From: Gigantopelta aegis
Taxonomy: Eukaryota; Mollusca; Gastropoda; Neomphalida; Peltospiridae
Length of the DNA stretch: 64,000 bases
Direction of reading: 5' to 3'
Assembly: GCF_016097555.1 (NCBI RefSeq)
Contig: NC_054707.1
Location: 45,530,892-45,594,891, forward strand
Made by a program: the position numbers and the translations under genes. Positions 3,299-56,970 of this stretch are shown in pieces (position 1 is the first letter of the stretch; every line of letters begins with the position of its first letter). The notes under the pieces are model-generated. The model was given only the letters and a program-made list of their open reading frames with translations, ran no database searches and was not told the DNA's origin.

Positions 3299-6200
3299 GT
3301 AAGTTACTAATATATTTATTAATACAATATATATTCTGTTCGGTCTTCCCGGTCGTAAAATATATTTCACTAATTTAAACACAGAATCAGAAATACCAGA
3401 GGCGAATCGGGGGGGGGGGGGGGGGGGGGGTGCTCCCCTAAAAAAAATTACGATCCCCTCCAAAACTCCCCCAAAGTTCCATTTGCATTCCGCCTCATGC
3501 CATAACGATAATAAACCAACACTATTTGTAATATCGATAAACCTTTTTAGAATTATTTTCCAGAGTACTTTTAGTTATTTTGTTACTACTACAGAATCGA
3601 TTTTTATGTGTCCGTATTCCGTGTGAATACGGACACATAAAAATCGATTCTGTAATTATCCATTGCTGTGAACGAAGAGGTTTTGATAACCGCGCCTTTG
3701 CCCGTCAAAAAACCGAACACATGAAAAATAGCCTTACAATAATAATCAACTGTGAATTTCGTTTGATAATCAGGCGCGTGTTCAGGACTGTATAGGGGGT
3801 CTAGACTCAATCTAATTAAAGTTAGCTCCACTATTACATGTGGATCTAACAGCAGCCCGTTGGAGCTCATGTCCAGTTGACCTTTCATTCGACCAATCAA
3901 AACCTTACTTGCAAAATCATGCCAGTGATTTAAAAGGAATTTGAAAACATTCGGGATTATGCCGAGGGTATACGAAATGATTCGGATGAATTACGAAGTA
4001 TGCCGGAAACTAATTTCAAGATAAAATTATACATAAAATTCGTTTTAAGACGGAAAAACACGCGTAATGGTATAGCCATAAAATCTGTTTATACTAGTAT
4101 ACAATCCAGAGTTTATTACTGCACTGCAAGTTCGCCTATTACATAAATAGTCTCGCCCGATATTTTTAGAATTTGTATGCTTCCGAATAACGCTATAAAC
4201 GGCGAAGTGTAATTGGTCGATATTTGAATTGTTATTTATAGATGAAATGTCACCTGGATGTGGGAGTCCACGCAATGCTGTTAGATCTACCAGAGTAGAC
4301 CCAGTAGAGCTAATTAATCAGATTGGTCTAGACTGTGGCGACCGACGTATATAGGGGACGGTGGGGGGGGGGGGGGGAGGGAAAACGAGACTGGCTCCCC
4401 CTGAAAAAATATTGAAAAACAAAAACGAAAATTTGCTTCAGCGGAGTGGGATTTCGACTCCTGAAAATCTACCTCCCACCACGCGCCTGGTAATGTCAAG
4501 TTTATGTGATGACGTGAGGCGGATATGAACGAATATTGTGCACTTTGTGATAGAATTGTGCTACTTTGCGATAGAAGTGTGCCACTTTGCATGCATATAG
4601 TACTTGGGTCTGGATATGTTTAGATATAGTGCCAACTGAACAACACCCCCTAAGTGCCTGTATCGCCATCTAGTGATAAAGCGTATTTGGTATAATGCCA
4701 ACATGAACGGGTTTTTTGTTTGACGCACTGGTAGCGTCTTTACGCTTTGCCACCAAAATTGCCTAAATTGATCCATTTATATACATAATTATATTATATT
4801 CTTGATGAACTGAAGTTAAGAAATGTTTAGTAATACTAATATTTAAAATGTAGCATAAAATGAGCACACATATTTACAATTTGACTTTGGGTTACATATC
4901 TAACACATCATGCATAGTTTGATCTAAATGGACGACGAAACTAAAGTAAAGTAAAGTTTGTTTTATTTAACGACGCCACTAGAGCACATTGATTTTGTTA
5001 TCTTATCATCGGCTATTGGACGTCAAACACATGGTCATTCTGACACTGTTTTTTTAGAGAAAACCCAATATCGCCACATAGGCTACTCTTTTACGACAGG
5101 CAGCAATGGATCTTTTATTTGCGCTTCCCACAGGCAGGATAGCACAAACCATGGAGTTTGTGGAACCAGTTATGGATCACTGGTCGGTACAAGTGGTTTA
5201 CACCTACCCATTGAGCTTTGCGGAGCACTTACTCGGGGTTTGGAGTCGGTATCTGGATTAAAAATCCCATACCTCGACTGAGATCCGAACCCAATACCTA
5301 CCAGCCTGTAGACCGATGGCCTAACCACGATGCCACCGTGGCCGGTAAATGGACGACGAAAACACAGCACACTCAGTATTACATATTTAGTTGGGTTTTT
5401 TTTTTTTTCATGTCTACAACAGTTTATAAATATACATTTTTAACAACTCATATTTATTTGATTGCATACTTAATAAGGTATACAATTAATAAACAAGGTG
5501 GAAACTATGATCTGTATATAGAGGCCATTTCATGTTGTTTTTTCGAATACGATTTTCATGTCAACGAGTGATGTGTGAAAACAATATTTATACGACTTGC
5601 GAAGCAATGAGTTAAAATGTGGTTTTCACACATCACGAGTTGCGAAGCAATGAGTTAAAATGTGGTTTTCACACATCACGAGTTGCGAAGCAATGAGTTA
5701 AAATGTGGTTTTCACACATCACGAGTTGTGAAGCAACGAGTTAAAATGTGGTTTTCACACATCACGAGTTGACATAAAAATCATATTCGAAAAACACCAT
5801 GAAATTGTCTGTTTACTATATACATCTTTCCTAATTTTTGACAATATCATTCGCTTTTTGTTAAAGTTACATTCTCTGGTTACCATATGATAATATCATG
5901 CACAAATATGAAATACAAGTTCAACTGCACTTTTAAAAAAATCGTGTGTGTTCGCTATGAACGGAGAACGTCAAAAGTATACGCTAGATTCGTCGCCTGT
6001 GCGGCCATTGCTCGGCAAACCACAAACGACAGCCTGTTGTCAATTTCAGTGAACAGGTGCGTTTGCGGATTTGAAATTGTAGGGTTCGTCTCAAAAAAAT
6101 GAAATGAGAATTCTTGTGCAGTATAAAGAACGTTCGGTTAAGGATACGTACTATTCTTTCGTTAAACCGGTTTTGATCTTGACAATCGTACCTTCTTATT

Positions 6201-21300: not shown

Positions 21301-22472
21301 CACATTAACCACCTTTGAAAATTACCAAGCTTGTAAATAAAACCGAAGAATGGCGCTTTAAACTTTAAAAACTTCATAATCCTTTATAATTAATCTTACT
21401 ACTTTTTCTTGCAGCAAAGCTGGTGATACGATGACCACACTAACTGACAAGTTTTTCGCATGGGACTATGGCGGATCAATAATATTTGACGGTCTCTACC
21501 GATGTGACAAGACATTTGGGACAAATTACCAACCGCTTCTAAATACATTTCTAAACAAATATACAACAGACCCAGATTCATTTGGCTACAAGGTTCAACA
21601 CAATATAACTGTACCATTCCACCGTAATGTAGGAGACAGAATTGGAATGTTCCCCGTTGCGTACCTGAACAGAGCGTCTGAACAGTCTGTTACAACAGGC
21701 CCTGACGTAGATCTGGCCCAAGCAGTTGCAGAACAGTATGTCCTTAAGTTTCCAATTAGACTTCCTGATGGAACATTTGCCCGCAGAAAAGGATGGAAAG
21801 GGAATAGCTTCAACACTTCAACCTATCTTTGGATAGATGATACCTATATGGGCTTCACGCTTTTAGCTCGCTTGTCCCGGATGTTCAAAAATGAAGAATA
21901 TGCCAAATTCATCGCCAAACAACGCATGTCTTTTAACCACCATCTTCAGGACCAAAAGGATGGTTTGTTTTTTCACGGAATTAACACGGCACCCAAGACC
22001 CTGTCTTGCTGTAAATGGGGTCGAGCCAATGGGTGGAGTATCACGGCTTCTGTAGAGGTCTTGTTGACTTTAACACCCTTCAAGGAAAGCATGAAGCACG
22101 AATGGAACGCCATAATGGATAGCTTCAGAAGACACGCCAGAGGGATGGTCAAACATCAGTCTTCAGACGGAAGATGGCACCAGCTCGTGGATGATGACAC
22201 ATCGTATCTGGAGACGTCCTGTACAGCAATGACTATCAGCTCTATAGCAAGGGCGGTTAACGAAGGGTGGTTAGACAGAAAGGAATTCGAAGAAAGCTTA
22301 CATCGAGGATGGAAAGGTCTGGAAACCGTCTTGAAATCTAATGGTACTATCAGTGGTGTGTGCCGTGGAACAGGTAAGTAGCTTTGTAAAGATTTGTGTT
22401 GTTGGATCTTCATATTTGCAAGTTGCTTTATAATCAAATACAATTCAAATTAATGCTAAATCAAGAAACAGG

Positions 22473-22557
<85 letters not shown>

Positions 22558-24974
22558 ATGTGGCGATTACTTGACAAAAATAATCGATTACAATTACGAT
22601 TACTTTAGAATGTCACGATTATGATTACGATTACGATTAAAAGATAATTGAAAGTAATCGATTACGATTGCGAATACATTGTCTAGCAATCAAAATTACA
22701 ATCATGATTACATTTCCACAAATCTACACAAATAAATAAAAGATCTTGCTACCATGAAGTTATGCACTTTAGTTTACAACAATACCGATTTCATTCATTG
22801 AAAGACAATGGATAATTTTGGATTATTTATTAAATTATTTCAAACATTTATAAACATATGTATACTGCAGGGAGGGAACCAGTTTCCGAAACCAGATTTA
22901 TTATTCTTAAATTTGGATTATTGACGAAAGGGTACCCATAACCATAGGTATAATTATTGTATCAATGCATAACATATATATTTTGTTATATTATTGAAAT
23001 AAGCCATAATTAGTAATTGCAAACTGTCTGATCACTATTACTTGTTGTTTTATTGTTTGTAGAACGTATACCATTTAATATCATCCACAAATTAAAATAT
23101 ATATATATTTTTTTTAAATCTATAAATGAAGAAATGAAGAACGAAAGAAAAGAACAAACAAGTAAATAAATAATTAAATTGATATCTGGATACATATACA
23201 TGTGCACAAGTTGTTCATTGCATTTAATTGTTGACATTCTAAAAATGACTATTATTAATGAATCGACTTGTAGACATGCTTGCTTTGTGCCATATTATAA
23301 GGATCCAATTGTATCGGTGAAAATTACAAGTATCTTGGTCTGTGTATGTTTATTTTGGTATCATTAGAAGCGCCGCATTTCGTAGAACATCTATTAAAAT
23401 CAGCTTTCTGACGTATTAATATTTTAAGCTATTTTAAAGGAAAATAAACCAAGGTTTATCGTGATAGACTACTTTCAACTGGGTGTTTGCTTAATTAGTT
23501 ACGTTATTTGTGGTTGTGTCTGCGACAGGTTGAGGATGACTGCCCATGGAATCAAGCTTGATACAACTGGCTGGCTGCCCGTCTGCAGTCGTAACCACTA
23601 ACAAAAGAAAATAACGTTTGCCACGGTACCATTGGTGGACTTTCACACCTGTGACAAAACGAAATATTGTCAAGCGTTTCTTAGTTGAATTCAGACCCGT
23701 GATAACGCTGGCATGGTGCAGCGCCCTTTTATATATTGCTAGCTAGAACATTGTATTCATTCAAGTGGTTTTATAGTAAATGTAAACACGATAGATACCA
23801 TTATGTGAATGTGTGTCTTCATCCCCTGGGTAACATTCATTTGATAATCCAGAAGTTATGATCCCCTGTTTCTCAAGGCAAATAATAGTTCTACTATGAG
23901 AGTAGTAGACAATGGGAGATCATTTCTACTGACTGACCAGTACTGCTTCTAACTATAGGCGCTAAGTTTAGTAAATAATTATGAGTAATCATGAAAGTGA
24001 TCGCTGATTACGATTGCATTAGCAATGTAATCGATTACGATTGCGATTACATGACATTCTCAAACAATGTAATCGATTACGATTGCGATTACATGAAAAC
24101 ATGTAATCGATGACAATCGATTACGATTACCCCATCTCTGATATATATTTGTGGCCGAGTGCATAAAGCACCCTCACACAAAAACTACACAAGTTCGATC
24201 TCGATTATATTCTTTAATCCATGATGATAACATATAGACAAAGTATATGAAAAGGAGAGTTGGCCCCAAACGTCTTTCTCTCTTGCCAGATATTCTCTCT
24301 CTCTCTCTGAGTCTCTCAGTGAACTATCTTTCACCCCAGTCACTCTAATAACATCACACACACACACTTGACCAATACTGGCAGACCATTACTGTCCTGG
24401 GTTCCTTAAGATAACCCCAGTGACAGTGTTTACCATATATTAATGTCCCAAGTGTCTTGGAGGAATTTCCCAAGTACCTTAAGTCTAAACAAAGAGAAAT
24501 AAACCTCAGACGCCTTAGTGGTGTTTATGCATGTTTAGTATAATAACACATTATGCTGGGTGCTTTAGTTGAATCCCTCACAAACATATGTGCATATAAC
24601 TAAGATTATTTTTTATTACAAATAAACAAAAATGATTGCAGTTGTGATTATTTATATTTCAAGCATTAAAAGACACATTTTGTTTTTGTGTTGTTGTTTT
24701 ATCAGCTTTGCTAATATTACAAGTAACGTGCAAAACATAATTATACTGTTTTGTCTTCCTAGGAATACAGGCAGCTCCCATTGATTACAAAAACCGAGAA
24801 ACAACCTACCTAAAAACCAGGAATGGCGGGATAGGTTTCGTGTACCATGCAGCTGTAGACTATCAGAACTTCCTGGCAACATCTGCCGTCAGCATCGTCA
24901 ACGGACAATATCTACTTTCTGTGCATGTTGCGCTGACACAAGCAGTCTACATATATATTAATTATCTTCTGTAG
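3219..24974 (+). CDS. Secreted GH105-type unsaturated glycuronyl hydrolase (three-exon gene)
   Basis: Model: exons 3219-3298, 21415-22373 and 24763-24974, giving 1251 nt and 416 residues. Phases join exactly and all junctions are GT...AG. Residues 1-19 look like a signal peptide (hydrophobic core LILLSW...TFALL, then CVEG). The body matches the GH88/GH105 six-hairpin barrel family, with LWIDDTYMG holding the expected catalytic Asp and WGRANGW, the most diagnostic family motif. Known members remove unsaturated uronic acids left by lyases acting on rhamnogalacturonan, ulvan or related polysaccharides. The likely role is extracellular or digestive breakdown of plant or algal cell wall; the exact substrate cannot be read. 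Length fits the family (about 370-400 plus signal peptide). Oddities: an 18.1 kb first intron full of transposons, and a stop codon inside a minisatellite. A possible AATAAA lies at 25203-25208. Confidence 0.8.
3404..3455. repeat. Poly-G tract in a dispersed repeat
   Basis: About 20 consecutive G. Similar G runs occur at 4363-4378, 6510-6532, 18296-18324, 51570-51592 and 52135-52151. Several belong to repeat families that end in poly-G followed by text like CTCCCCTAAAAAAA. Confidence 0.8.
3591..3653. repeat. Perfect 29 bp hairpin
   Basis: The left arm 3591-3619 and right arm 3625-3653 are exact reverse complements around a 5 nt spacer (CGTGT). The arms start ACAGAATCGATTTTTATGTG. No ORF or known element explains it. 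Confidence 0.9.
3808..4325. mobile_element. Short MULE-like element, ORF-less relative of the 26.6-30.2 kb element
   Basis: The 518 bp element starts CAATCTAATTAA and ends TTAATCAGATTG. It is flanked by the 9 bp direct repeat GTCTAGACT at 3799-3807 and 4326-4334. Its left ~200 bp matches the left terminal repeat of the large element (GTTGGAGCTCATGTCC, AATCAAAACCTTACTTGCA, CCAGTGATTTAAAA). Positions 4150-4240 match that element's promoter-like segment. The right end retains ATGAAATGTCACCTGGA and the outer terminus, but all coding sequence is missing. It is an internal-deletion derivative. Confidence 0.8.
4505..4740. repeat. Dispersed repeat, inverted partner at 19580-19740
   Basis: Shared words in reverse complement include GTGCCAACTGAACA (here) against TGTTCAATTGGCAC (19610s), TGTGATAGAATTGTG, and GAGGCGGATA. 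Both copies are non-coding and sit in the same intron of the GH105 gene. Confidence 0.55.
4941..5345 (-). mobile_element. Full-length tRNA-derived SINE, 16 bp target duplication
   Basis: Reads on the minus strand from a tRNA-like head (right end, GGTTCGGATC B-box region) to an (AAAGT)n-type tail at the left. It is flanked by the direct repeat TAAATGGACGACGAAA at 4925-4940 and 5346-5361. The tail-side segment (GAGCACATTGATTT, ATCGGCTATTGGACGTCAAA) is of a different type from the copies at 15354 and 52900, so it is a modular variant. Confidence 0.85.
5521..5815. mobile_element. Palindromic MITE with internal 43 bp tandem repeats
   Basis: The outer arms are inverted: CCATTTCATGTTGTTTTTTC near 5523 against AAAAACACCATGAAATTG near 5790. 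Between them a 43 bp unit (GCGAAGCAATGAGTTAAAAT... ending in CACACATCACGAGTT) repeats about four times, at 5599, 5642, 5685 and 5728. No ORF. Confidence 0.75.
6378..6822 (-). mobile_element. SINE copy interrupted by a poly-G repeat
   Basis: The tail side (TTTGTTTAATGACATCAGTG) starts about 6395. The head side (GGGATCGATCCTAGACCGACC) ends about 6815. About 190 bp of unrelated sequence with a ~22 G run splits the SINE at roughly 6500-6685. Beyond it, 6823-7130 holds nothing recognisable. Confidence 0.6.
7167..8155 (+). pseudogene. Broken Tc1/mariner transposase
   Basis: Translated segments in several frames align by eye with the intact transposase at 55249-56256. They include the N-terminal helix-turn-helix (IGRLQLGESQSAVARY, ISRLWDRY, SGRPRVTT), WFSDESRF, DRFGGGSVM, QDNARPHTA-like text and a closing GGHTRY. 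Stops and frameshifts occur throughout (stop after RLWDRY; frame changes near 7440, 7560, 7830 and 7920), so it is dead. Intact relatives cut and paste DNA with a DD34E catalytic triad. Confidence 0.8.
8319..8348 (+). repeat. Right terminal inverted repeat of the broken Tc1 element
   Basis: TTTCTTTTTTGACAGAGTA resembles the reversed TIR of the 54.9 kb element (ACTCTTCAAAAAAAGAAACG). No matching left end is visible before 7167, so the copy is 5'-truncated or decayed. Confidence 0.6.
8435..8771 (+). mobile_element. Exact second copy of a Harbinger-derived 337 bp block
   Basis: The block is apparently identical to 9313-9649 and equal in length. It is bordered on both sides by the 21 bp direct repeat that ends TTTTTCAAATACGATC (8414-8434 and 8772-8792). 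It encodes broken HARBI1-like text (NPLDVFSDFELIKRY; LQYYASGTF-like near 8722). Confidence 0.8.
8840..9132. repeat. Large inverted repeat of a GTGCACGTTAAAC-type retroposon
   Basis: The left arm starts AGCTGTTGTAGCGCACGCCTG-like sequence at 8840. The right arm ends with its complement at 9112-9132. The inner parts also pair (GGAAAGGGGTTGGGGTAGGT against CCACCCCAACCCTTTCC). Read to about 9175, the right half ends in TGAATGTGCACGTTAAACC, also seen at 52450 and 59150, so this is a head-to-head pair of one dispersed family. Confidence 0.65.
9180..9199. repeat. Perfect 20 bp palindrome
   Basis: AGCCTTCGTTAACGAAGGCT is self-complementary and lies between the retroposon pair and the Harbinger left end. 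Its role is unknown. Confidence 0.85.
9220..9900 (+). pseudogene. PIF/Harbinger transposase remnant (HARBI1-like)
   Basis: The left terminus resembles GGGGCCAAATTCACAAAAGC followed by TTGCTAAG repeats. Coding fragments in shifting frames read MARRMLQLAGLRRAMRFDG (from 9394), NPLDVFSDFELIKRYRF, YYASGTF-like text, then PRVIGCVDGTHLSGVRRV near 9787-9855. The DGTH segment carries the first catalytic Asp of the Harbinger nuclease. Stops and frameshifts show it is inactive, and no right terminus was found. Confidence 0.7.
10288..10585 (+). mobile_element. tRNA-derived SINE, 3'-shortened
   Basis: Head: CCGGCCTCGGTGGCGTCGTG, then a B-box-like GGTTCGGATCC. Body: GGCCATGGTTTGTGCTATCC, GATCCCTTGCTGCTAATCGG. 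Ends in (TTTC)n. Same family as 15354-15746 and 52900-53279 on the other strand. Confidence 0.8.
10595..10869 (+). mobile_element. Non-tRNA SINE-like retroposon, copy 1
   Basis: The 275 bp element starts near CCCTGTGCGTGCTGTATCC and ends in (ATTC)n. It is flanked by a 9 bp direct repeat ATACACGGC (10586-10594 and 10870-10878). The 5' part folds: GTGCTGTAT pairs with ATACAGCAC, and inside lies the hairpin CATTCTC-TTT-GAGAATG. The 3' part (GACACCCAATAGCCGATG, GGTGTCGTTAAAC) is shared with tRNA SINE tails. Copy 2 is at 63097-63372. Confidence 0.8.
11397..13956. repeat. Cluster of an iterated 14-mer, GTCATTGGTGTTAC
   Basis: Forward copies begin near 11397, 11593, 11784, 11939, 11955, 13599 and 13619. 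Reverse copies (GTAACACCAATGAC) lie near 11977, 11997 and 13942, with one or two mismatches in some. They concentrate at the two ends of a 2.56 kb stretch that has no convincing ORF. This resembles sub-terminal transposase-binding repeats of a DNA transposon, but no terminal inverted repeat was located. Confidence 0.7.
12410..12540. repeat. TTG/TTTG simple repeat and G/T-rich low complexity
   Basis: Runs of GTT and T with a short G run. The ORF through it is a low-complexity artefact. Confidence 0.9.
14113..17085 (+). mobile_element. L1/Tx1-like LINE fragment, broken reverse transcriptase
   Basis: Coding blocks match the second ORF of an L1/Tx1-type LINE. They run from TKWIEEG upstream of the RT, through SPGSDGFTAEF, IPKPNKP...NWRPITLLN, DQTGFIKGRYIGENI, LLLIDFEKAFDSI, GCRQGDPLSPYIF and the catalytic YADDTSFIL (near 15125), to a C-terminal Cys/His segment (CSFCNKSPETIQHILFEC, 16820-16880). 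It is dead: frame loss near 14150, a stop at 14761-14763, a SINE insertion at 15354-15746, and stops near 16688. The 5' part with ORF1 and the endonuclease is missing. Confidence 0.85.
15354..15746 (-). mobile_element. Full-length tRNA-derived SINE inside the LINE
   Basis: The direct repeat TTAACCTAGAAGAAA occurs at 15339-15353 and 15747-15761, a 15 bp target duplication. On the minus strand it reads head (CCGGCCTCGGTGG...GGTTCGGATCC), body, then (TTTC)n tail. It inserted after the LINE, so it is younger. Confidence 0.9.
17230..17639. mobile_element. MITE with ~65 bp terminal inverted repeats
   Basis: Left AAGCCTATTTCACTAAACAT... and right ...GTGTAGTGAAATAGGCTT are inverted copies, and the similarity extends through GTTTACGTGTAAAACTTACA. 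The interior holds a SINE-tail fragment (about 17435-17505, GTTTTGTTTAACGACAGTAC). The target duplication is unclear. Confidence 0.75.
17640..18990. other. Non-coding intron sequence with simple repeats
   Basis: A (GTAG)n run covers 17996-18065 and a ~29 bp poly-G run 18296-18324. Otherwise I recognise nothing. Confidence 0.5.
18990..19107 (-). mobile_element. SINE head fragment
   Basis: The end ACGACACCGCCGAGGCCGGG and internal GGGTTGGAGCAGGTATCTAG match the head half of the 15354 SINE family. The body is missing. From here to about 19560 I see no gene. Confidence 0.6.
19782..21165 (+). mobile_element. tRNA SINE split by a solo LTR
   Basis: The left half (GCCAGTGCACCACAATTGGT ... TGATGACTGTG, to 19908) resumes at 21061 (CTGTGTCAGAATTACCAAAT, GTTTGACGTCTAATAGCCGA). 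The two halves join as one SINE body and tail when 19909-21060 plus one CTGTG copy is removed. Confidence 0.75.
19909..21060 (+). mobile_element. Solo LTR, 1152 bp
   Basis: Begins TGTCACGGGG, ends TTCTGTCACA, and is flanked by the 5 bp repeat CTGTG (19904-19908, 21061-21065). This TG...CA structure with a 5 bp duplication is typical of an LTR retrotransposon after LTR-LTR recombination. It contains GCGGAGGTATTACGTAAC twice (about 20857 and 20938) and a TATA-like TTATAAAAG near 20706. No gag or pol remains. Confidence 0.7.
21415..22373 (+). CDS. GH105 gene exon 2 (catalytic barrel)
   Basis: Acceptor TTTTTCTTGCAG, donor ACAG|GTAAGT. The exon completes the split Val codon and runs 319 codons to Arg-Gly-Thr, leaving one base (G) for exon 3. 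Motifs include AWDYGG near the start, LWIDDTYMGFTLLARL mid-exon, CCKWGRANGW and DDDTSYLETSCTAMT. The internal ATG at 21431 is not the true start, because the open frame joins upstream through the splice. Confidence 0.85.
22473..22552. repeat. TA microsatellite
   Basis: A long (TA)n run immediately left of an hAT-like element. It inflates a spurious ORF. Confidence 0.95.
22553..24140. mobile_element. Non-autonomous hAT-like element in GH105 intron 2
   Basis: The left end CAGAGATGTGGCGATTAC and right end GATTACCCCATCTCTG are imperfect inverted repeats, flanked by TA-rich ATATATAT on both sides (compatible with an 8 bp duplication). Both sub-ends carry iterated TAATCGATTACGATTGCGAT words (22585-22680, 24000-24125). 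No transposase ORF. Confidence 0.65.
24763..24974 (+). CDS. GH105 gene exon 3 (C-terminus)
   Basis: Acceptor TTTTGTCTTCCTAG. GGA is completed with the last G of exon 2, then IQAAPIDYKNRE and on to a stop TAG at 24972-24974. The last ~10 codons lie in the 32 bp minisatellite, so the native C-terminus may once have been different. Confidence 0.7.
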
Positions 24975-25035
24975 CAGTCTACATATAGATTAATTATCTT
25001 CTGTAGCAGTCTACATACATATTAATTATCTTCTA
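24936..25035. repeat. 32 bp minisatellite overlapping the GH105 stop codon
   Basis: Three copies of a unit with GCAGTCTACATA and ATTAATTATCTTCTGTA. The same unit occurs at window positions 1-260. Confidence 0.85.
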
Positions 25036-25444
25036 TAACAGTATTATGTGGTATTTAAACACTGGTAGACTTCGTGAATACCCAACTATCAAGATTCAGA
25101 CCATTAGACTGCAAAGTTAATTTTTAACCTACATACATATATATAAAAGCATAGATAGAATTACCATGCATGTATATTATAGTATTGCTATATTTCTTGT
25201 GTAATAAAAGTAACATTTGATTGTTGAAAAATGTGGATTAGGATACATGTGCACGCGTGTGTGCGTGTGTATGCGTGGTGTGGTGCATGTGTGTGTGCGT
25301 GCGTGTATGAGTAGGCTTGCTAAATGGCTTGCTGTGTATGCGCAGCCCTATCCAGAACAGTTAAATGAATTATGTATTTGATTATTTACTAAACTGATTA
25401 TTTGAGTGGTTGCTAAAACTGCCTACATAATTATAATGTATGTT

Positions 25445-25548
25445 AATGTAGCCTACCTATATGTAGTCAAATGTTTGACATCCAATAGGCGATGATTGGT
25501 AAATCAATGTGCTCTTGTGATGTCGTTAAATAAAACAAACTTTAAAGT
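25445..25548 (+). mobile_element. SINE tail fragment
   Basis: AAATGTTTGACATCCAATAG, then GGCGATGATTGGTAAATCAATGTG-like text and GATGTCGTTAAATAAAACAA. Same tail as the copies at 43165 and 62331. Confidence 0.7.
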
Positions 25549-25614
25549 GTAGTTAACCGTTCGTAAAGGAGAATACATGGGCGAGTTTCGGTGTGCGTGC
25601 ACGTGGGTGGAATG

Positions 25615-25900
25615 TGATTTCAATCAGATTGAGCACATTCATTAATAAATCATCGGCTATTGCAAGTCAAACATTTGTTAAATCTGACACGAAGTCTTGG
25701 GAGGAAACCCGCTACATCAATCTTCCCATTAACAGCAAGGGATCTTCCGACAGGCAGGATAGCACACGGTCTTTGATATAGTAATCGTGGGGCACTGGTT
25801 GGGACGGGAAAACCCAATGGGTTCACCGAAATGGTTCGATCCTAATATCCATGCACCTCAAGCGAACGTTCTACCGACTGAGGTAAATCCCGCTCCATAG
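25615..25900 (-). mobile_element. tRNA-derived SINE, degenerate
   Basis: Tail GAGCACATTCATTAATAAAT on the left, body ACAGCAAGGGATCTTCCGAC, head CTACCGACTGAGGTAAATCC on the right. It faces the fragment at 25445, forming an inverted pair. Confidence 0.7.
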
Positions 25901-26003
25901 TGAGATTGACTCCATTGGTTCTATACAGAGACGTGCATGGCAAATTTATATTCGTTTATATTTGTTTTTAAACAAATACCTGTAATGTACTTTCTAAACA
26001 GGC

Positions 26004-26170
26004 GTGCATACTACACACGATCGCGCTTTATGGGGCACGGCAGAAGCTAATGGACACATTGGAGGGGGCGTGTGTTATGGGGGGTGGGGTGGGGGGTGGG
26101 GGCATACTATGTATGTATGTATACACGATTTTATAAAATTTAATACAGTGAAAAAAGAAAAAAGAAAAAA
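26004..26170. repeat. Dispersed repeat matching the insertion site of the MULE-like element
   Basis: GTATGTATGTATACACGATT, then TTATAAAATTTAATACAGTG, then A-rich sequence. The same order flanks the large element (26521-26558 on its left, 30184-30235 on its right), so this copy is a paralogous empty site. Confidence 0.7.
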
Positions 26171-26859
26171 TTATGATTGGGTGAAGAGTCATTGACCCCG
26201 TGCAAATACAATGCATCTTTACGAATGCTCATATATATGCAACACTTTTTAAATGTATTTTTCAAGATGTATACAATTTGTAAGCAAGTGTATATAATAT
26301 GCTGATTATATATAAACACCATAGTCAGGTACTAAATTGTTGTATCAAATGATATGATAACTTACAATAAACGACCGAATCAAGTAAGTCGTTACAATTA
26401 TAATCACAAATATTATGAATATTAATAACAACAAACAATCGAATTACTACGTAGGCACTGGTGTGGTTGGATTTTATATTGGGGGTGAGTGGGGTGGGTG
26501 GGGGACAACCCATACAGCATGTATGTATGTATATATGTATGTATGTATGTATGATTTTCAATCTAATGGATCTAACACCAGCCAGTTGGAGCTCATGTCC
26601 ACCAATCAAAACCTTACTTGCAGAATCCTGCCAGTGATTTAAAAATAATTTGAAAACATTCCGAATTATCCTGAGGGTATACATCATGTTTCGTGTGAAT
26701 TACGAATTTTATAAAATAAATAATTTGTGATGTAAAACTGAAGACTGATTTAGTTCTGGGTTTTTTATAAAAAAAAAAAAAAAATTAATGTAAAATTGAA
26801 GACATGAGCACCCGTCCGTATTGGTATGGTTCGCTGTACTGCGGCCACTAAAATAGACT

Positions 26860-26961
26860 CGCCCGCTATTTTTAGAATTTGTATGCTCCCAAATAACGTA
26901 TAAAAGGCGAAGTGTGATTGGTCAATATTTAAATTATTATAGATTCCAATATTTCTCAGCG
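26860..26961 (+). promoter_or_regulatory. TATA-containing promoter-like segment of cargo ORF 1
   Basis: TATAAAAGG near 26902 and an inverted CCAAT box (GATTGGTCAA) near 26919 lie about 40-60 bp upstream of the ATG at 26962. The same arrangement survives in the ORF-less element (CTATAAACGG and AATTGGTCG near 4190-4220). This is a sequence-based guess. Confidence 0.45.
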
Positions 26962-27913
26962 ATGAAGACGGACGTTAGTCCTTGTTCTCTCGATCTGCCC
27001 CCCCACCTGGGGGAACTGATGAAGACGTATGGAATGCTGTTGGAGTATCGAGTCTCGTACACCGGGTCACGGGCAACCGTGACCTTGGTGTACGGAGACC
27101 GGATTCAAAAGAAAGGAAGATGGAGGAAGAGGAGACGTGTGCCAGCGGCGGCGCAGGGGGGGGGGGTCAAAACCGGTGGCTAAACCGCCGGCGGCGACTC
27201 CTTCTGTTCGACCGCCGAACACCGCTCACCCGAGCAAGAAGACTAGAGCAGAAGAGGTTCCGGCCCCGGATGTTCAAGCTTCTATGCCAACGGAAGAGCC
27301 GGAGACGGAGTTTGACACGGAAATCTGCGTCACACCGTACAACCGGCCACCTGCACCAATTCCTACGGAAGCGCTTTCGGACTTGTCGCCGATTATACTG
27401 GCGACACCCGTTGAGGCGCAGGCCCGGAAGGTGGCCGTTGTCAAGAGGAAGGCGACCACTCCCCCGAGTGCCATACCAGCCAAGCCGAGCCGCCCCTCTC
27501 AACCGCCGGAGACACACGAACAACCAGTGGAGCAGTGGTCACTGCAGGCCAGCCGTCTCCCCCAGCGTTACCAACAACTGGTTAAGAACAACATCAGGGA
27601 TGAACGTCTACTCATCAGTAGACCCAAGGCCCTTTCCTACAACCCATTGCCAGACAATCCAGACGAGGGGGAGTTCGCGGTACATCGGCTCAAGACGCGG
27701 GAGGGACACGACGCAGTTTGCGTCACCATCTGCCGGAGCGGAATATTCAGCCAAGGTGTGCTATTCTTGGAGATGGACAACCCGACACTACATCGTGTTC
27801 TTAAAACCATCGCGGGGACACACTACCGTTCCATCACCAAGGAGTTAGCAGACTCCGACTACCGGCAGTTCCTCCCGCAGCTTGAGATCACCGGATTCAT
27901 CGGATCCCCCTAG
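26962..27913 (+). pseudogene. Cargo ORF 1 of the MULE-like element, frameshifted in poly-G
   Basis: Paralogue of the ORF at 28491. The N-terminal part (MKTDVSPCSLDLPPHLG..., a basic KKGRWRKRRR stretch, Ala-rich linker) is in the frame of 26962. At an 11 G run (27156-27166) the frame shifts by one, and the rest reads from the next frame to the stop at 27911-27913, ending FIGSP. One fewer G would keep a single frame, so this may be a real mutation or a homopolymer error. The middle is Pro/Ala-rich with KRKATTPPSA; the C-terminal ~85 residues form the best conserved block (DEGEFAVHR, EMDNPTLH, YRQFLP). I do not recognise the family. Confidence 0.6.
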
Positions 27914-28437
27914 ACGCCAACCTCCTTTCCTCCGTGAGTAACCTCCTTTTTTGGGCTAGTTAGACTTTAAATGTTTTGGAATGCAGTTCAAAATTTTTAT
28001 GTTTATTTTTTTATAAATAGTCTAACGCATTTTGTTTTGGCGCCCGTTCAATTGCTCAAAATCACCTTAAAACTTTTCGGCCGAGCAGTCTTAACCATTT
28101 TTGGCTAAAATTTTAGAGTCCAGACATGTATCGGTATGCAGTACTCTTTGTAGACTTAGGTAAAAAACAGGCTTCACCGAGGAATCGAAATTCAGCCAAT
28201 CAGAACACGGCTCCCACTCGGTGTTACTTCTTGTTTATGAAGTGTCTGCTAGTCGGTCCGCGCTTACTAAATGGCTTTTTTCCAAATTCCGCCCACTTCA
28301 AACTTACCCCCCCCCCCCCCCCCCCCCCCCCCTGCTCCGGAGTCAGTCACTGGCGAAGTCAGAGGCTAATTCCGCAGTGGGCGTGCCTGAACCTTCGTGG
28401 ATAGGGGCACGTAAATATAGTTACCCATACCCATAAA
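27914..28437 (+). repeat. Conserved 3' block of tandem unit 1
   Basis: Nearly identical to 29442-29984. In a ~107 nt stretch compared by eye only three differences were seen. It includes TGGGCTAGTTAGACTTTAAA, GGCGCCCGTTCAATTGCTCA, a C-tract (28310-28332) and TGGGCGTGCCTGAACCTTCG. The short ORFs in it are shared only because the DNA is shared. Confidence 0.8.
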
Positions 28438-28490
28438 TTATTATTGATTCGATTCTTGCATTCGATTCTTACATTCTGTATTATTTTTCG

Positions 28491-29441
28491 ATGAAGACGG
28501 ACGTCAGCCCTTGCTCTCTCGATCTGCCCCCCCACCTGGGGGGATTGCTCAAATCCTACGGAATGCTGCTAGAGTACCGGGTATCGTGCACCGGGTCACG
28601 GGCCTCCGTGACCTTGGTGTACGGGGACCCGGTACCACCGAAGAAAGGAAGGTGGAGGAAGAGGAGACGTGCGCCAGCGGCGGCGCAGGGGGAGACAAAA
28701 CCGGCGGCTAAACCGCCGGCAGCGACTCCGTCTGCTGGACCGCCCAACGCCGCCCAACTGAAGAGGAAGACGAAGATGGAAATGGTTTCGGCCCCAGTCA
28801 TCAACGTCCCCTCTGCAGGAACCGAGGAAAGTGATATGCCGGACTCAGTCTTCTGTACTTCGTCATATATCCGACCCGATCCGCCTGCCTTTACTTCTGG
28901 GCTTCCGGACTTGTCGCCGATTAAACCGGTGGCATCCGTTGAGACCCAGGCCCGGAAGACGGCTGTTGTTAAGAGGAAGGCGACCACTCCCCCGAGTGCC
29001 ACTCCAGCCAAGCCAAGTCGCCCGACTCAACCGCCGAATCCAGTTGAACAACCAGAGGGACCATGGACACTGAAGGCCGGCAAACTCCATCCGCGGTTCC
29101 ATCAGCTCATAAAGATCAACATCGAGGACGTGCGCCAGCTCATTAGTGAGCCGCAACATAGCGCTTACCTTCCGCTACCGACCGAGTCCGATGAAGGGGA
29201 ATTTGCTGTCCATCGAGTCCAGGTGGACGTGGATATCACCGCAGTTTGCGCTACCGTTCGCCGGAAGGGAAGATATAACCAAGCGCTGCTCCTTAAAGAG
29301 ATGGACAACCCGTCACTACATCACGTCCTTAAACTCTTGGCGGGGTCAGAGTACAGTCACATCGCAAAGTGGATAGCAGCCTCTCCCTACCGGCGTGATC
29401 TTCCACTACTGGACGCCACCGACTTCATCGGCTCGCCGTAG
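28491..29441 (+). CDS. Cargo ORF 2 of the MULE-like element, unknown 316-residue protein
   Basis: Intact and intronless from ATG 28491 to TAG. Residues 1-55 are a compact domain (MKTDVSPCSLDLPPHLGG..., ending in SVTLVYGDP), followed by a strongly basic GRWRKRRRAPAAAQ (about 58-71), possibly a nuclear or nucleic-acid-binding patch. Residues 72-210 are Pro/Ala/Thr-rich and look disordered. Residues 230-316 form a conserved C-terminal block (DEGEFAVHR, KEMDNPSLHHVLK, FIGSP). No signal peptide, membrane segment or catalytic motif is visible. It is much GC-richer than its surroundings. No transposase signature is seen; the function is unknown. Confidence 0.65.
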   Translation: MKTDVSPCSLDLPPHLGGLLKSYGMLLEYRVSCTGSRASVTLVYGDPVPPKKGRWRKRRRAPAAAQGETKPAAKPPAATPSAGPPNAAQLKRKTKMEMVSAPVINVPSAGTEESDMPDSVFCTSSYIRPDPPAFTSGLPDLSPIKPVASVETQARKTAVVKRKATTPPSATPAKPSRPTQPPNPVEQPEGPWTLKAGKLHPRFHQLIKINIEDVRQLISEPQHSAYLPLPTESDEGEFAVHRVQVDVDITAVCATVRRKGRYNQALLLKEMDNPSLHHVLKLLAGSEYSHIAKWIAASPYRRDLPLLDATDFIGSP

Positions 29442-29847
29442 CCCCCAACCTCCTAACAACCTTTACCTCCGTGAGTACTAACCTCTTTTATTGGGCTAGT
29501 TAGACTTTAAATGTTTTGGAACGCAGTTCAAAATTCTTATGTTTATTTTTTTTTATAAATAGTCTAACGCATTTTATTTTGGCGCCCGTTCAATTGCTCA
29601 AAATCACCTTAAAACCTTTCGGCCGAGCAGTCTTAACCTTTTTTGGCTAAAATTATAGAGTCCAGACATGTATCGGTATGCAGTACTCTTTGTAGACTTA
29701 GGTAAAAAACAGGCTTCACCTAGGAATCGAAATTCAGCCAATCAGAACACGGCTCCCACTCGGTGTTACTTCTTGTTTATGAAGTGTCTGCTAGTCGGTC
29801 CGCGCTTACTAAATGGCTTTTTTCCAAATTCCGCCCACTTCAAACTT

Positions 29848-29880
<33 letters not shown>

Positions 29881-29984
29881 CTCCGGAGTCAGTCACTGGC
29901 GAAGTCAGAGGCTAATTCCGTAGTGGGCGTGCCTGAACCTTCGTGGATAGGGGCACGTAAATATAGTTACCCATACCCATAAAT
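29442..29984 (+). repeat. Conserved 3' block of tandem unit 2
   Basis: Same content and order as 27914-28437, with a longer C-tract (29850-29879). It continues into TTACAGACGAAATGTTACCTGG-like sequence, also seen at the right end of the short element near 4240. Confidence 0.8.
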
Positions 29985-30192
29985 TATTATTTACAGACGA
30001 AATGTTACCTGGACATTGGGGACTACGCGTTTAAATAAGGCATTCGTAATTCACATGAATCATATCGTATACCGTCAGGATAATTCGGAATGTTCTCAAA
30101 TTATTTTTAAATCACTGGCAGGATTCTGCAAGTAAGGTTTTGATTGGTGAACATGAGCTCCAACTGGCTGGTGTTAGAGATTGTATGATTTT

Positions 30193-30588
30193 ATAAAATT
30201 TAATACAGTAAAAAAAAAAAAAAAAAAAAAAAAAAAGATTTGGGGAGGGGGATATTGTCCGTGCCCCCCCCCTCCTCGTTACGCCACTGTATGTAGGACT
30301 TTGTTTTACAACGTTTAGCTTAATTCTGGTTTAGTAGCGCGTTTAGGCCTGACGTGAATTCTAGAGGGGTTAAGGGAATGTTTCGTCAAATATAATGTTG
30401 GAACCTTTGACGTTCTAACATGCGATTACTGCTTTCGACAAGTAAAAGTAACCATGACAAATGCCGATAAATACCAATATTTGATACATGTAAAGCAAAG
30501 CTAACATATACTTTGACGAATATAGCCTACTTCAAAACTTGTTCATGCTCTAGATCCAGGGAGGGAAAGTACCCCCCCCCCCCCCCCC

Positions 30589-30620
<32 letters not shown>
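30193..30620. repeat. A-tract, poly-C MITE end and CA microsatellite
   Basis: Poly-A at 30211-30236. The right end of a CAGTGGCGTAG-type MITE (CTCGTTACGCCACTG) ends near 30290. A C-run and (AC)n lie at 30571-30619. Confidence 0.7.
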
Positions 30621-30622
<2 letters not shown>

Positions 30623-31029
30623 GCACGATATGTTTAATTACATAGTTTTTAGTTCCGCCGCCTGTGGTTGTTTTTAGAGAACTCAGTTATTGTTGTTGTT
30701 GCTCCCTCGTCCCAACCTGATGCGGGTCATGTTATCTAGTAAACAGGTATCGGAATGTTACAAGTACGGGGGAAGTGGGGCGAATCCGATTAGTAACGAA
30801 ATGTTCCGATTCTGGCCGATATCCAAATTCGGGAGTTCTCGCCCCGTATCTCCTAACAACCGGTGTAGTTTACATTTATTCGGAAACATGGCCGCCTCCA
30901 GTTGAAACGGGCACCTGTCGCTGCTTAGACTACATACGCCATATTATTAAAGAATTAGTCCACAAAATTACCGTTTAGTTTATCAGTAGCGTTAGTTTTA
31001 GTTTGTAAATAGCTTTTAATTTGCTAACC

Positions 31030-31558
31030 ATGGAGGCTGTGGCTTCAAAGAACCATGTACTTTCCGATTCTAACTTGAAGAGCAGACCCGAATTCCGGAC
31101 ATATCTGACGACGGACGCCAGCGCTGGCGGTGACGTCGTGACACAGATAAAGGAGAAACGTCGACGTCGTCACCAGAACTTCCCTTGCCTTCGCGGCCGC
31201 GCCGATGTCGATTCTTTTCAAGAAAAGGTAAACGAGAACCCGTCTTTTAAGAAATGGAACGACGAAGGGAACTACAGAGCCCCGGCCCCATACAGAAGCT
31301 TTGACAACATCGTGGATCCTGTGTCGGGCTTTGTCAGTGTCGGAGGCGATATGGATCGAAACACTGGCCACACGATGATGCGGTCGTTTGTTCTGCTCAG
31401 TGACACTCCGCAGTCGGCTGCTCCGAGAGATCGTCATTCGAACCGCACCAACGAGCCGGCGGCGCCCATGGAACTGCGGAGAGCGACCACCACTGGTGGC
31501 CCGTCACAATGGAACAGCAGGAAGGTTCCCGACGCTTCAATTAGAGCAAAGTTGGGGG
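31030..31558 (+). CDS. SPMIP7: Sperm MIP gene exon 1
   Basis: 176 codons plus one base, donor GGGG|GTAAGT. Encodes MEAVASKNHVLSDSNLK..., a basic KEKRRRRHQN stretch and FDNIVDPVSGFVSVGG. It is clearly GC-richer than flanking introns. The upstream 30660-31029 is presumably 5' UTR or promoter; no TATA box stands out. Confidence 0.8.
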
Positions 31559-34500
31559 GTAAGTTAGTAACAATTGTGTTGATTTATTTTATAGTGATTT
31601 TTGTTTCTTGTATATAGTTTGCAGAGGAGCATGCTCCAGACCCAACCCTCCTATAAACTTAATTCGCCAGTTTAGATTCAACCATGATAAAATGCCTACT
31701 CATGGGGGTGTGGGTTGGAGACATAGGAGGGTGTGCATTGTAATTAATATTTATGTTTGTTCACATGGAATCCGGGTGGTTTCGTCCCAAAACAATTTCG
31801 CACCCAAGGCATTTCGCCCGTATCCATTTTCACCCCAATTTGTTTTGTCCCCCAGTAAGGTCATTTCACCCTTTATCCGGGTCGTTTTGCCTAGCTGATA
31901 ACACATCCTAGCTGATAATTTAAATCTACTAATATACTGCTGGCACCGGTTCTTTCTGCGGACAAATACAACAAATTACAATGTCAGCGGTCACCAAAAA
32001 CGTTCTGCGACTTTAACCAAAAGAAGGACGACTACAGCCTGCTATTTATACCACAGATAGGCGATGACAACTCATGATAGCAATGCTTAGGAATGACAAA
32101 CGACTGGACCAGCAAACAATGCTAAGAAAAGAAATACACACAATACAATAATTGTTTAAAAGTAATAAATAATTGGGAGTTGGGGGCAAACTGACTGAAA
32201 GTTGGGAGTGAACTGACAAACAGTTGTAGGCGAATTGACTTGGGGCAAACTGGTATATGGGGTGAACAGGTCAAACTAGGGGTGAACTGACTTGGGGTGA
32301 ATTGTCTTGGGGGTGAAATGTCATGGATGTGATTATTCAGCCATCAGACATAAGGCTGGTAGGTACTGGGTTTGTAACCCTCTGTCCTGGACATGAAATA
32401 CACCAATCTAAATTTCCCCCAATATTCAAACAACCCCTTTCTGTCCCGATCGATACAACCAACATATGTCAGAGGTGGTGATTGGGATGGACGTGCTTGA
32501 ATCTTCACGTAAATAAAGTTTTGGTTGTTTGGTAATATAATATTTTTAAATAATCGTATTAAAATTGTTTGTGTGTAATATACGGACACAAACATTGAAA
32601 TTAATTATCACTATATCAGAGTCGCAAATATTACATATTATTATGTCTTTAGCCATAGCTCGCTACTGTGATTTATTTATTTCTGTTAAAATAGCTCCTT
32701 GCTGAAAAAAAGACACAATATTTATATAGGAGGAGGGGAGGGGCGGAACGACCCGACTGTTGGGGCAAAATGACCCGTTTGAAGGATGAACCTACCCGGG
32801 ATGAAATGACTCGGGGCGAATCTGGATAAGGGTGAAACGACCTGATACAGTTTAAGTATGCCACATGGCTGTAGGATTTTTTTTATGGTAGGGGTGCAAT
32901 ATGTCGAGTATTTTAAAGTCGTCAAAGTATGTACACTAATATATACATGTATTATAATTTACATGAAGGCAAATGCCCTCCTGAAACACAGGCCAACCAA
33001 TATCTTGCATCTTCCTTAAAAGAACAAAAAATCTACATTCAATATAGTTATTTCAGTGTTTTTTCTAGCATGTTTTAGCACAATGCCTCTATAGTCTACA
33101 ATTGCCTGTATAAATACTCAGAAAATTAATTATTAATTAATAAAATATCCTGTTTAATATTTTGCCATTCATTTATTAAAGCAAGCACATTAATTATTTT
33201 TATTTCAATTAATGTTTTTGTTATTAATGAAAAAAAAGTGCTCTGAAAATGGTGAAAATGCCCCCAAAGTGTTTAGTCTACCATGCGTACCAAATTTCTA
33301 GGGAAAACACTGTATTTTGTTAACCATTGTATTCTTTAGGCACTTTGAAATTCAGGGATATGTATACAAACAAACATTGCTCTTGCCACACCCACTTGTG
33401 ATCAGTTACAGACCAGCCCTTTATTATAAGTTCTTCACTTGTTTGTTTAAATCTGTTTTAGGTTTTGGGCTATTTCTCATTCCAGCCAGTGCTCCATAAC
33501 TGGTGTAACCAAGGCTGTGGTATGTATTATCCTGTCTGTGGGATGGTGCATATAAAATATCCCTTGCTGCTAATCGAAAAGTGAAGTGGTGACAGCAGGT
33601 TTCCTCTCAATATCTGTGTGGTCCTTAACCATATGTCTGATGCCATATAAACGTAAATAAAATGTGTTGAGTGCATTGTTAAATAAAACATTTCCTTCCT
33701 TCCTTACTGTTTTAGGTTGGACCAGTGACCATGATCCAAGAAAACCAGTCTCTCAACCTCTTGGCTTGAGGCGCTCTAAGGTACTTGTCATGCATTGAGG
33801 ATCATTTGAGACATTTCACGCAGATATTCCAGGTTTCTGCCTGTACCTCTATACAGTATATATAGAACAGTACACTAGTGTTCACAACATGTCATTTTTA
33901 TGAAACGAGTAAACTTCCCATGTTAGTATCAGACTGAACAAAGTTCATTAGTTAATAAATAAAATACCACACTCGTTTTCGTTAGACAACATTTTTTATG
34001 AAACTCCCGTGGTATCTGACCTTACTTTCGTTTGGTCATACATTAACATGAGATGTTCACCTGTTCCATAAAAATTATTCTGTAAATCTTAAAATATTAG
34101 CGAGCATAAAATGTTCATTGAATTTAGCTTGATCATACAAGATGCTAATATTTCATACATAAGTGTACAAGATGGGGCAGGGGTGGGGCACTTTCACACA
34201 CACACACACACACACACACCTCAGTCCTGGAGAAATTTGGGGAAAATGAGCTGGCCTGAACACTTTTCACCATGTGTTTGCATTATTCTACCCATTTATT
34301 AGTTGTAATCCATGTAAAAATGTGTGGTGATTTGTTTACAACCCTATATATAACTGGTTGGCAGTAATGCTAATATGAATAAACTTTGTAATCCAGATTC
34401 GGGCACTTTTGTTTAATTCAGGCAAAAGGCAGCCTGCCCCACTACAAAAATGGGAGCCCGTATGTCTATGATTTCATGATGCTAAATTTAAAGAGACATA

Positions 34501-48165: not shown

Positions 48166-48945
48166 GGGATATTTTTAAGGTCATTGAATGATGCATTACA
48201 TCACTGTTAAATTAATTTATTAGAACCAGCATAATTAAATATATGTATATTGGATATTTTTAAGGTCATTGAATGATGCAGTACATCACTGTTAAATTCA
48301 TTTATTAGAACCAGCATAATTAAATATATGTATATTGGATATTTTTAAGGTCATTGAATGATGCAGTACGTCACTGTTAAATTCATTTATTAGAACCAGC
48401 ATAATTAAATATATGTATATTGGATATTTTTACGGTCATTGAATGATGCAGTACGTCACTGTTAAATTCATTTATTAGAACCAGCATAATTAAATATATG
48501 TATATTGGATATTTTTAAGGTCATTGAATGATGCAGTACATCACTGTTAAATTCATTTATTAGAACCAGCATAATTAAATATATGTATATTGGATATTTT
48601 TAAGGTCATTGAATGATGCAGTACATCACTGTTAAATTCATTTATTAGAACCAGCATAATTAAATATATGTATATTGGATATTTTAAGGTCATTGAATGA
48701 TGCAGTACATCACTGTTAAATTCATTTATTAGAACCAGCATAATTAAATATATGTATATTGGATATTTTTAAGGTCATTGAATGATGCAGTACGTCACTG
48801 TTAAATTCATTTATTAGAACCAGCATAATTAAATATATGTATATTGGATATTTTTAAGGTCATTGAATGATGCAGTACATCACTGTTAAATTCATTTATT
48901 AGAACCAGCATAATTAAATATATGTATATTGGATATTTTTAGTAT
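48166..48945. repeat. 85 bp minisatellite, nine copies
   Basis: Units start near 48166, 48251, 48336, 48421, 48506, 48591, 48676, 48760 and 48845. Each contains TGGATATTTTTAAGGTCATT and TTAGAACCAGCATAATTAAA. Copies are nearly identical; one lacks a single T (near 48685). From here to about 49920 I see no gene. Confidence 0.95.
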
Positions 48946-54614: not shown

Positions 54615-54932
54615 TAACGGCTGGTGCATAATAATATTTCCTTCATTGTCTGCCAAATATATTTTTATTTATTTATTTTGATTATATATTATTATTTTGA
54701 ACACTGTAACTACACCTAAACAATTACATAATTTATTTATATTACACTTAAATCAAAATACATGCGGGATTTTTTAATTCAAATATGTTCGGAAAACATC
54801 GGCAATTTCCGTTGCTAACAAACAGTATTTTAAAAAGGCATATAAGACTGAGTAACCATTATGTTGCCACCAATTTCCATGCATGGGTAAATAATACAAG
54901 TTAAATAAATATATACATACATATATATATAT

Positions 54933-56428: not shown

Positions 56429-56442
56429 ATATATATATATAT

Positions 56443-56970
56443 ACTCTTCAAAAAAGTAGGGGAACCTGAAATATTAATGTTAATATCAACTATTAGACCG
56501 AACATACGTCTTGACCACAGACATCCTTGTAAAGAACGTTCAGGTCTGTTTATCAACACACCGAAACACATTCCATAGTTTGCACATGCATCACGCAGTT
56601 GCCCCGTACACGTGCGTGGGGTGTCATTCTCGATTTCGACAATTGCCAGGAAGGTGGATTAATCACTGTGGAACATTATTTCTGTCAATGTTTTTTGATT
56701 CTGTTGATCATACAGTTGTTATTGTTTAGTTTTTAGTCATTTTTTATTGTTTGAATTTGCAATTTACTGATAAAAAACCGTCGACTTTCAAATTTCACTT
56801 CTGAACCCAATCGTCCTTCGGCGGCCATAAAACCTACTGTAATACTGAACTACCTGTTGTAATGTTTTCCCAATTAATTCACTATTATCATATAACCATT
56901 CCCCACAGCTAATATACCTTACAATTTTGGCAATTGTAAATTCTTATTAGAGTTCCCCTACTTTTTTGAA

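What the first reader, a model, noticed from the sequence alone, without database searches (positions are those of the whole stretch)
26559..30183. MULE-like inverted-repeat element carrying two copies of an unknown gene
Seen: ~150 bp terminal inverted repeats, a 9 bp target duplication (TATGATTTT), and two tandem ~1.5 kb units, each with one GC-rich intronless ORF of a family I do not recognise. Known: long TIRs plus 8-11 bp duplications mark Mutator-like elements, and plant Pack-MULEs carry gene fragments. Inferred: a non-autonomous animal MULE with cargo, either captured or serving the element. Cargo-bearing MULEs of this sort are not something I know from molluscs. This is my main candidate for a new system.
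Basis: partly seen in the sequence, partly recalled or inferred. Interest (0 to 1): 0.9.

Follow-up and report, generated by a model that had tools for sequence, protein, structure and literature searches.

The report
Gene-carrying jumping DNA from vent snail
This is a 3.6-kb piece of jumping DNA, very probably from a deep-sea vent snail, that carries two diverged copies of a gene seen so far only in that snail; it is a neat example of genes riding on a transposon, but what the gene does and which enzyme moves the element are not shown.

Summary
Transposition is further supported by a 518-bp gene-less sister with its own exact 9-bp duplication (3808-4325) and a related empty site at 26108-26170.

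Inside are two modules whose proteins fall in different subfamilies of a basic, proline-rich orphan family: 20 clusters, 19 named Gigantopelta aegis and one the window's own. No credible Pfam, NCBIfam, PHROGs or PDB match was found in the members scanned. The coding parts have diverged strongly (33 of 81 four-fold sites in the C block differ), yet the 3' spacers are 97% identical, so the spacers were homogenised or the modules joined late.

Nine-bp duplications and long inverted repeats fit Mutator-like elements, but no transposase partner could be sought: the genome search was unanswered in 19 of 19 tries. Host-gene capture is unsupported; a gene spread as part of the element is likelier but unproven. 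The nearest precedents are Ssk-FB4 (fly) and Tm1 (nematode).

The parts
26550..26558 (.). left target-site duplication TATGATTTT
26559..26707 (+). left terminal inverted repeat, starts CAATCT
26851..26940 (+). segment with TATA-like GTATAAAAGG and a CCAAT-type motif (names recalled), 89% identical to the gene-less sister at 4145-4235; possible promoter of unit 1 (inference)
   Evidence: motif by eye
26930..26940 (+). junction 11-mer TAAATTATTAT, copy 1 (others at 28434-28444 and 29980-29990)
26962..27913 (+). unit 1 gene, frame-shifted at G-run 27156-27166; subfamily with P0003 and P0005
27914..28444 (+). 3' spacer of unit 1 (poly-C tract 28307-28332), ends in the junction 11-mer
28491..29441 (+). 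unit 2 gene, intact, 316 aa, pI 9.55, 12.7% proline; subfamily with P0002 and P0004
29442..29990 (+). 3' spacer of unit 2; against spacer 1: 16 mismatches in 531 aligned bases and 18 gap columns
30042..30183 (-). right terminal inverted repeat, ends AGATTG
30184..30192 (.). right target-site duplication TATGATTTT
26108..26170 (+). related empty site: 63 bp, 90% identical across the joined flanks, element absent; 7 of the 9 target bases the same
3808..4325 (+). gene-less 518-bp sister element, same terminal hexamers, flanked by GTCTAGACT at 3799-3807 and 4326-4334

Best explanation
A non-autonomous, cut-and-paste type DNA transposon, most likely Mutator-like, moved by a transposase encoded elsewhere. 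Its arms enclose two gene modules that came from two older subfamilies of one element-borne gene family and were joined at short TAAATTATTAT junctions; their 3' spacers then stayed or became nearly identical by gene conversion or unequal exchange. The gene probably belongs to the transposon family (an accessory, nucleic-acid-binding type of protein) and is not a captured host gene fragment. Shown: ends, 9-bp duplication, sister element, related empty site, two subfamilies, coding/spacer contrast. Inferred: transposase class, acting in trans, mode of joining, gene being element-borne, protein role.
For: Ends, duplications and chance figure. Empty site. The sister keeps the arm and the TATA-like segment but no gene. 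Subfamily split: unit 1 with P0003 and P0005, support 100/99; unit 2 with P0002 and P0004, support 97/95. Dispersal: 20 clusters with 11 distinct contig lengths. A search with the C-terminal domain of P0010 scored 73 candidates and gave 7 proteins, the query itself among them, all G. aegis. Constraint between units: NG86 dN/dS 0.07/0.51 (N block) and 0.35/0.78 (C block). Spacers: 16 of 531 mismatches; four-fold sites: 5 of 28 (N block) and 33 of 81 (C block) changed. pI 9.6-10.1 in the three members computed, with a K/R-rich stretch.
Against: No transposase was found and no other gene-bearing copy could be read at DNA level, so whether the other family genes lie between the same arms is unknown. 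Unit 1 is broken, so the element need not depend on it. Some 11-mer other than a simple run recurs in 61 of 300 shuffles of the non-coding part, so the junction repeat is telling only by its position. YN00 gives the C block a ratio of 0.40/0.60, so constraint there is weak. A host parent gene in G. aegis could not be looked for in the DNA. Part of the empty-site match is ATGT microsatellite and A-rich sequence.
Confidence: 0.55

Rival explanations
1. Pack-MULE proper: the arms captured a lineage-specific host gene by template switching, and a later exchange doubled it.
For: GC-rich cargo (58% against 37%) fits the bias of multicopy Pack-TIRs stated in PMC8277862 (passage); short identical sequence at the breakpoints; a gene-less sister with the same ends exists.
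Against: No relative outside G. aegis found; many diverged clusters on several contigs suggest a mobile gene rather than one capture.
Confidence: 0.25
2. Unit 2 with its two near-identical 0.5-kb direct repeats is a small LTR-type retroelement that landed in a transposon already holding unit 1.
For: Topology repeat-ORF-repeat with 97% identical repeats; basic, proline-rich protein.
Against: No reverse transcriptase in the 4 ORFs scanned; no TG...CA ends, primer site or purine tract seen by eye; the repeats end in the same 11-mer that stands left of unit 1.
Confidence: 0.07
3. The element belongs to another DNA transposon superfamily with 8-10 bp duplications, and not to the MULEs (this does not exclude the element-borne gene of the best explanation).
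For: CA...TG ends and the 9 or 10 bp ambiguity; no transposase seen.
Against: 8-11 bp duplications and arms of hundreds of bases are stated for MULEs (PMC6446971, passages), though some MULEs lack arms.
Confidence: 0.25
4. Ordinary tandem host genes flanked by inverted repeats by chance.
For: Tandem arrangement; intact ORF.
Against: Exact duplications and sister copy, related empty site; relatives on other contigs.
Confidence: 0.02

Closest known systems
Ssk-FB4, Drosophila Pack-MULE (PMC8277862; outline with abstract, passages and section 9 seen)
   Same: Animal inverted-repeat element with 9-10 bp duplications carrying a coding gene; multicopy; one locus tandemly duplicated.
   Different: Ssk is a known host gene with a known parent; FB4 arms are ~700 bp; here the gene is an orphan family and the two copies are strongly diverged.
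Tm1, Mutator/Foldback family of root-knot nematodes (PMC3169594; outline with abstract, sections 5 and 9, part 1 of 2 of section 11 seen)
   Same: 9-bp duplications, imperfect arms (mean 93% identical), MITE-like sisters, and non-autonomous members that hold a transcribed gene (Cg-1).
   Different: The Tm1-HH elements shown there have no obvious protein-coding potential, whereas this element has an intact 316-aa ORF. Tm1 arms are built of ~14-bp repeats and Tm1-HH holds a histone hairpin; neither was seen here. Tm1 has a known Phantom-type transposase.
Mutator-like elements of molluscs (PMC6446971, abstract and passages; PMC10294476, passages)
   Same: MULEs are reported in all mollusc genomes analysed in PMC10294476; PMC6446971 gives duplications of 8-11 bp and lists a MULE-Mollusca group.
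   Different: Those are defined by transposase; none was found in this copy.

Membership tests
Mutator-like elements (MULE) | 8-11 bp target-site duplication | tested here: met
   9 bp (or 10) at 2 of 2 elements found in the window
Mutator-like elements (MULE) | inverted terminal repeats, often long | tested here: met
   137 nt at 94%
Mutator-like elements (MULE) | MULE transposase, own or from a partner with the same ends | tested here: inconclusive
   None in the 4 ORFs of the element scanned; a partner in the genome could not be sought, the genome search unanswered in 19 of 19 tries
Pack-MULE / Pack-TIR | cargo derived from a host gene | tested here: inconclusive
   No relative outside G. 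aegis found, but the own genome's DNA was not searchable
Pack-MULE / Pack-TIR | non-transposase sequence between transposon arms | tested here: met
Foldback-type elements | arms made of tandem short repeats | tested here: not met
   No tandem array inside the arms at minimum score 50
LTR retroelement | reverse transcriptase, or LTR ends with primer site and purine tract | tested here: not met
   No Pfam match to a reverse transcriptase in the 4 ORFs scanned; end signals not seen by eye
Tm1-HH | histone 3' hairpin | tested here: not met
   Consensus typed from recall; the 1 match in the window with up to 1 mismatch is at 25917-25932, outside the element (3.19 expected by chance)

The most novel reading that the evidence does not exclude
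The snail's transposon family works as a gene-cassette carrier: modules of one orphan gene family, each closed by the same spacer and junction, are joined into arrays inside the arms, their coding parts free to diverge while the spacers are kept alike by exchange and serve as promoter/terminator and joining site.
Probability: 0.12. Interest if true: 0.75.

Novelty: new variant of a known kind. Interest (0 to 1): 0.45.

Why it matters
[quoted passage not shown] The element here ties a dispersed orphan gene family (labelled in public records atherin-like, argonaute 14-like and others) to a mobile DNA element in at least one place, and its diverged genes with near-identical spacers give a testable case of array building inside a transposon.

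Tried and rejected
Led nowhere. Pfam: 4 ORFs of the element and 18 of the 20 clusters (P0019 and P0020 not scanned) gave nothing above a curated cut-off; best were a plant domain at E 0.049 on the spacer ORF 29668-29982 and DUF1176 at 0.19 in 1 of 18 members. NCBIfam and PHROGs: 4 of 20 clusters scanned, best E 0.11 and 0.22. PDB: no match for the window protein, one at E 1.1 for the profile. Rfam on 20000-36000: 5 matches, all under gathering score. IMG/VR, one peptide pattern: 3 stretches, no relative. A histone hairpin in the style of Tm1 was rejected. A first tree of 13 rows had 1 of 10 inner branches well supported; I dropped P0007 (frame-shifted end), P0014 (altered C-terminus) and P0016 (long branch), and the 10-row tree resolved.

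The protein searches scored only the 8000 candidates sharing most words, and proline-rich words may have crowded out distant relatives; (C-terminal domain, 73 candidates, all scored) does not have that limit but reaches only relatives sharing exact words. In alignment A1, used as the profile, the unit 1 row starts at 27083 and is out of the gene's frame up to the G run.

Paper searches. Among the 2 to 15 papers listed per search (titles and abstract openings) I saw none on this element or on a gene-carrying MULE in a mollusc; papers matched but not listed were not seen. PMC13359780 (arthropod MULEs) was opened for outline and section 3.2 only.

Full report
OBSERVATION. The element runs 26559-30183 (3625 bp) from CAATCT to AGATTG. 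Its inverted arms pair over 137 nt at 94%; at the outer tip the right arm lacks 7 bases. TATGATTTT stands at 26550-26558 and 30184-30192. As the base before each left direct repeat is G, the duplication could be read as 10 bp with the element ending AGATT.

SECOND COPY. BLASTN of 26301-30500 against the window found a related sequence at 3841-3997, 4145-4235 and 4227-4258. Read in full it is a 518-bp element, 3808-4325, with the same terminal hexamers and GTCTAGACT on both sides. I tested all 21 CAATCT...AGATTG pairs lying 150-12000 bp apart: 2 have exact 9-bp direct repeats, these two elements, against 8e-5 expected. The sister has the left arm, the TATA-like segment and the right inner flank, but no gene. 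Near its left tip it carries 25 bp that the large element lacks.

EMPTY SITE. With the flanks joined and one duplication kept, the joined sequence aligns across the junction to 26108-26170 over 63 bp at 90% (alignment). Part of that match is ATGT microsatellite and A-rich sequence, and 7 of the 9 target bases agree. The large element therefore seems to have inserted into one copy of a short repeated sequence, of which an unoccupied copy lies about 400 bp upstream. No such site was found for the small element in the window.

INSIDE. Two modules lie head to tail (26960-28445 and 28489-29991, 80% overall). Each holds a GC-rich gene (58% against 37% in the window) and a 3' spacer. TAAATTATTAT lies at 26930, 28434 and 29980, that is at the left part, between the modules and at the right part; it occurs once more in the window, at 58277. 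The sister has one matching stretch (TGAATTGTTAT) where left and right parts meet. In shuffles of the non-coding part some 11-mer recurs in 61 of 300, so only the position of this repeat is informative.

GENES. Unit 2 codes for 316 aa without interruption; 1 of 20000 base shuffles is stop-free over that length. Unit 1 is shifted at 27156-27166, a G run; whether that is an assembly error is untested. Between units the N block is 85.5% identical in DNA and in protein (NG86 dN 0.07, dS 0.51). The C block is 67% and 55% (dN 0.35, dS 0.78). YN00 gives a higher ratio for the C block (0.40/0.60), so constraint there is weak.

FAMILY. Two database searches gave 20 protein clusters: P0001, the window's own, plus 19 named Gigantopelta aegis, with 11 distinct contig lengths. 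A third, with the C-terminal domain of P0010, scored 73 candidates and gave 7 proteins, the query among them, all from that snail. The window's GC (37.1%) is near the 37.22% reported for that genome (PMC7895826, passage). Hence the organism is very probably G. aegis; no tool named it. Public names of the clusters (atherin-like, argonaute 14-like, translation initiation factor IF-2-like and others) look like automatic labels; Pfam supports none in the 18 of 20 clusters scanned. The proteins are basic (pI 9.6 to 10.1 in the three computed); the fuller members show a conserved N-terminal stretch, an arginine-rich patch, a proline-rich middle and a conserved C-terminal domain.

TWO SUBFAMILIES, ONE SPACER. 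A tree of 10 C-terminal sequences puts unit 1 with P0003 and P0005 (100/99) and unit 2 with P0002 and P0004 (97/95) (a 13-row tree was poorly resolved). Unit 1 is 93.4% identical to P0005, whose contig length differs from the window protein's, but 58.1% to its neighbour unit 2. Yet the spacers differ at only 16 of 531 aligned bases with 18 gap columns, 9 of 483 beyond the first 60 columns, while 33 of 81 four-fold degenerate sites in the C block and 5 of 28 in the N block differ. Identity rises from 68% to 94% within one 75-column step at the stop codon. Neutral divergence at one common age does not give this. The modules met after the coding parts had diverged, and the spacers were then made alike by gene conversion or unequal exchange, or were alike for another reason, such as recent spread of the spacer.

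MECHANISM. Shown: target duplication, a related empty site, a gene-less sister, a gene family with members on several contigs. Inferred: a transposase acting in trans, MULE class, joining of modules at the 11-mer, expression of unit 1 from the TATA-like segment in the left part and of unit 2 from spacer 1. Whether the other family genes lie in such elements is unknown.

COMPARISON. MULEs are defined by their transposase; PMC6446971 (passages) gives target duplications of 8-11 bp and arms commonly of hundreds of bases, some families lacking arms. MULEs are reported in all mollusc genomes of PMC10294476 (passage). Animal precedents exist: Ssk-FB4, a coding Pack-MULE of fly populations (PMC8277862), and Tm1, whose Tm1-HH members hold the Cg-1 transcript gene but show no obvious protein-coding potential (PMC3169594). 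So this is a variant of a known kind and not a new system. What is different is an orphan gene family in place of a known host gene, two strongly diverged copies in one element, and near-identical spacers.

Noticed in passing
window 54918-56443: Probably intact Tc1/mariner-type element: 355-aa open frame with DDE_3 and Tc3-type HTH domains, between 40-nt inverted repeats at 95%.
   Followed up: partly
window 7507-7908: Open frame (+) resembles the same Tc1-type transposase by eye; no Pfam match at 1e-3.
   Followed up: no
window 14110-17083: Broken LINE: reverse transcriptase pieces in two frames and a zf-RVT domain.
   Followed up: no
window 21380-22381: Glycosyl hydrolase family 88 domain, E 2.6e-48, perhaps one exon of a host gene.
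   Followed up: no
window 36133-36877, 37782-39810, 48167-48941: Minisatellite arrays of 50-, 25- and 85-bp units, the second with about 83 copies.
   Followed up: no
window 28307-28332 and 29849-29879: Poly-C tracts of 26 and 31 bases in both spacers, unexplained.
   Followed up: no
P0017 (protein record): A 472-aa G. aegis model joins the family to roughly 300 N-terminal residues that look unrelated by eye; it has the same 62,808-bp contig length as P0006, so possibly an array.
   Followed up: no
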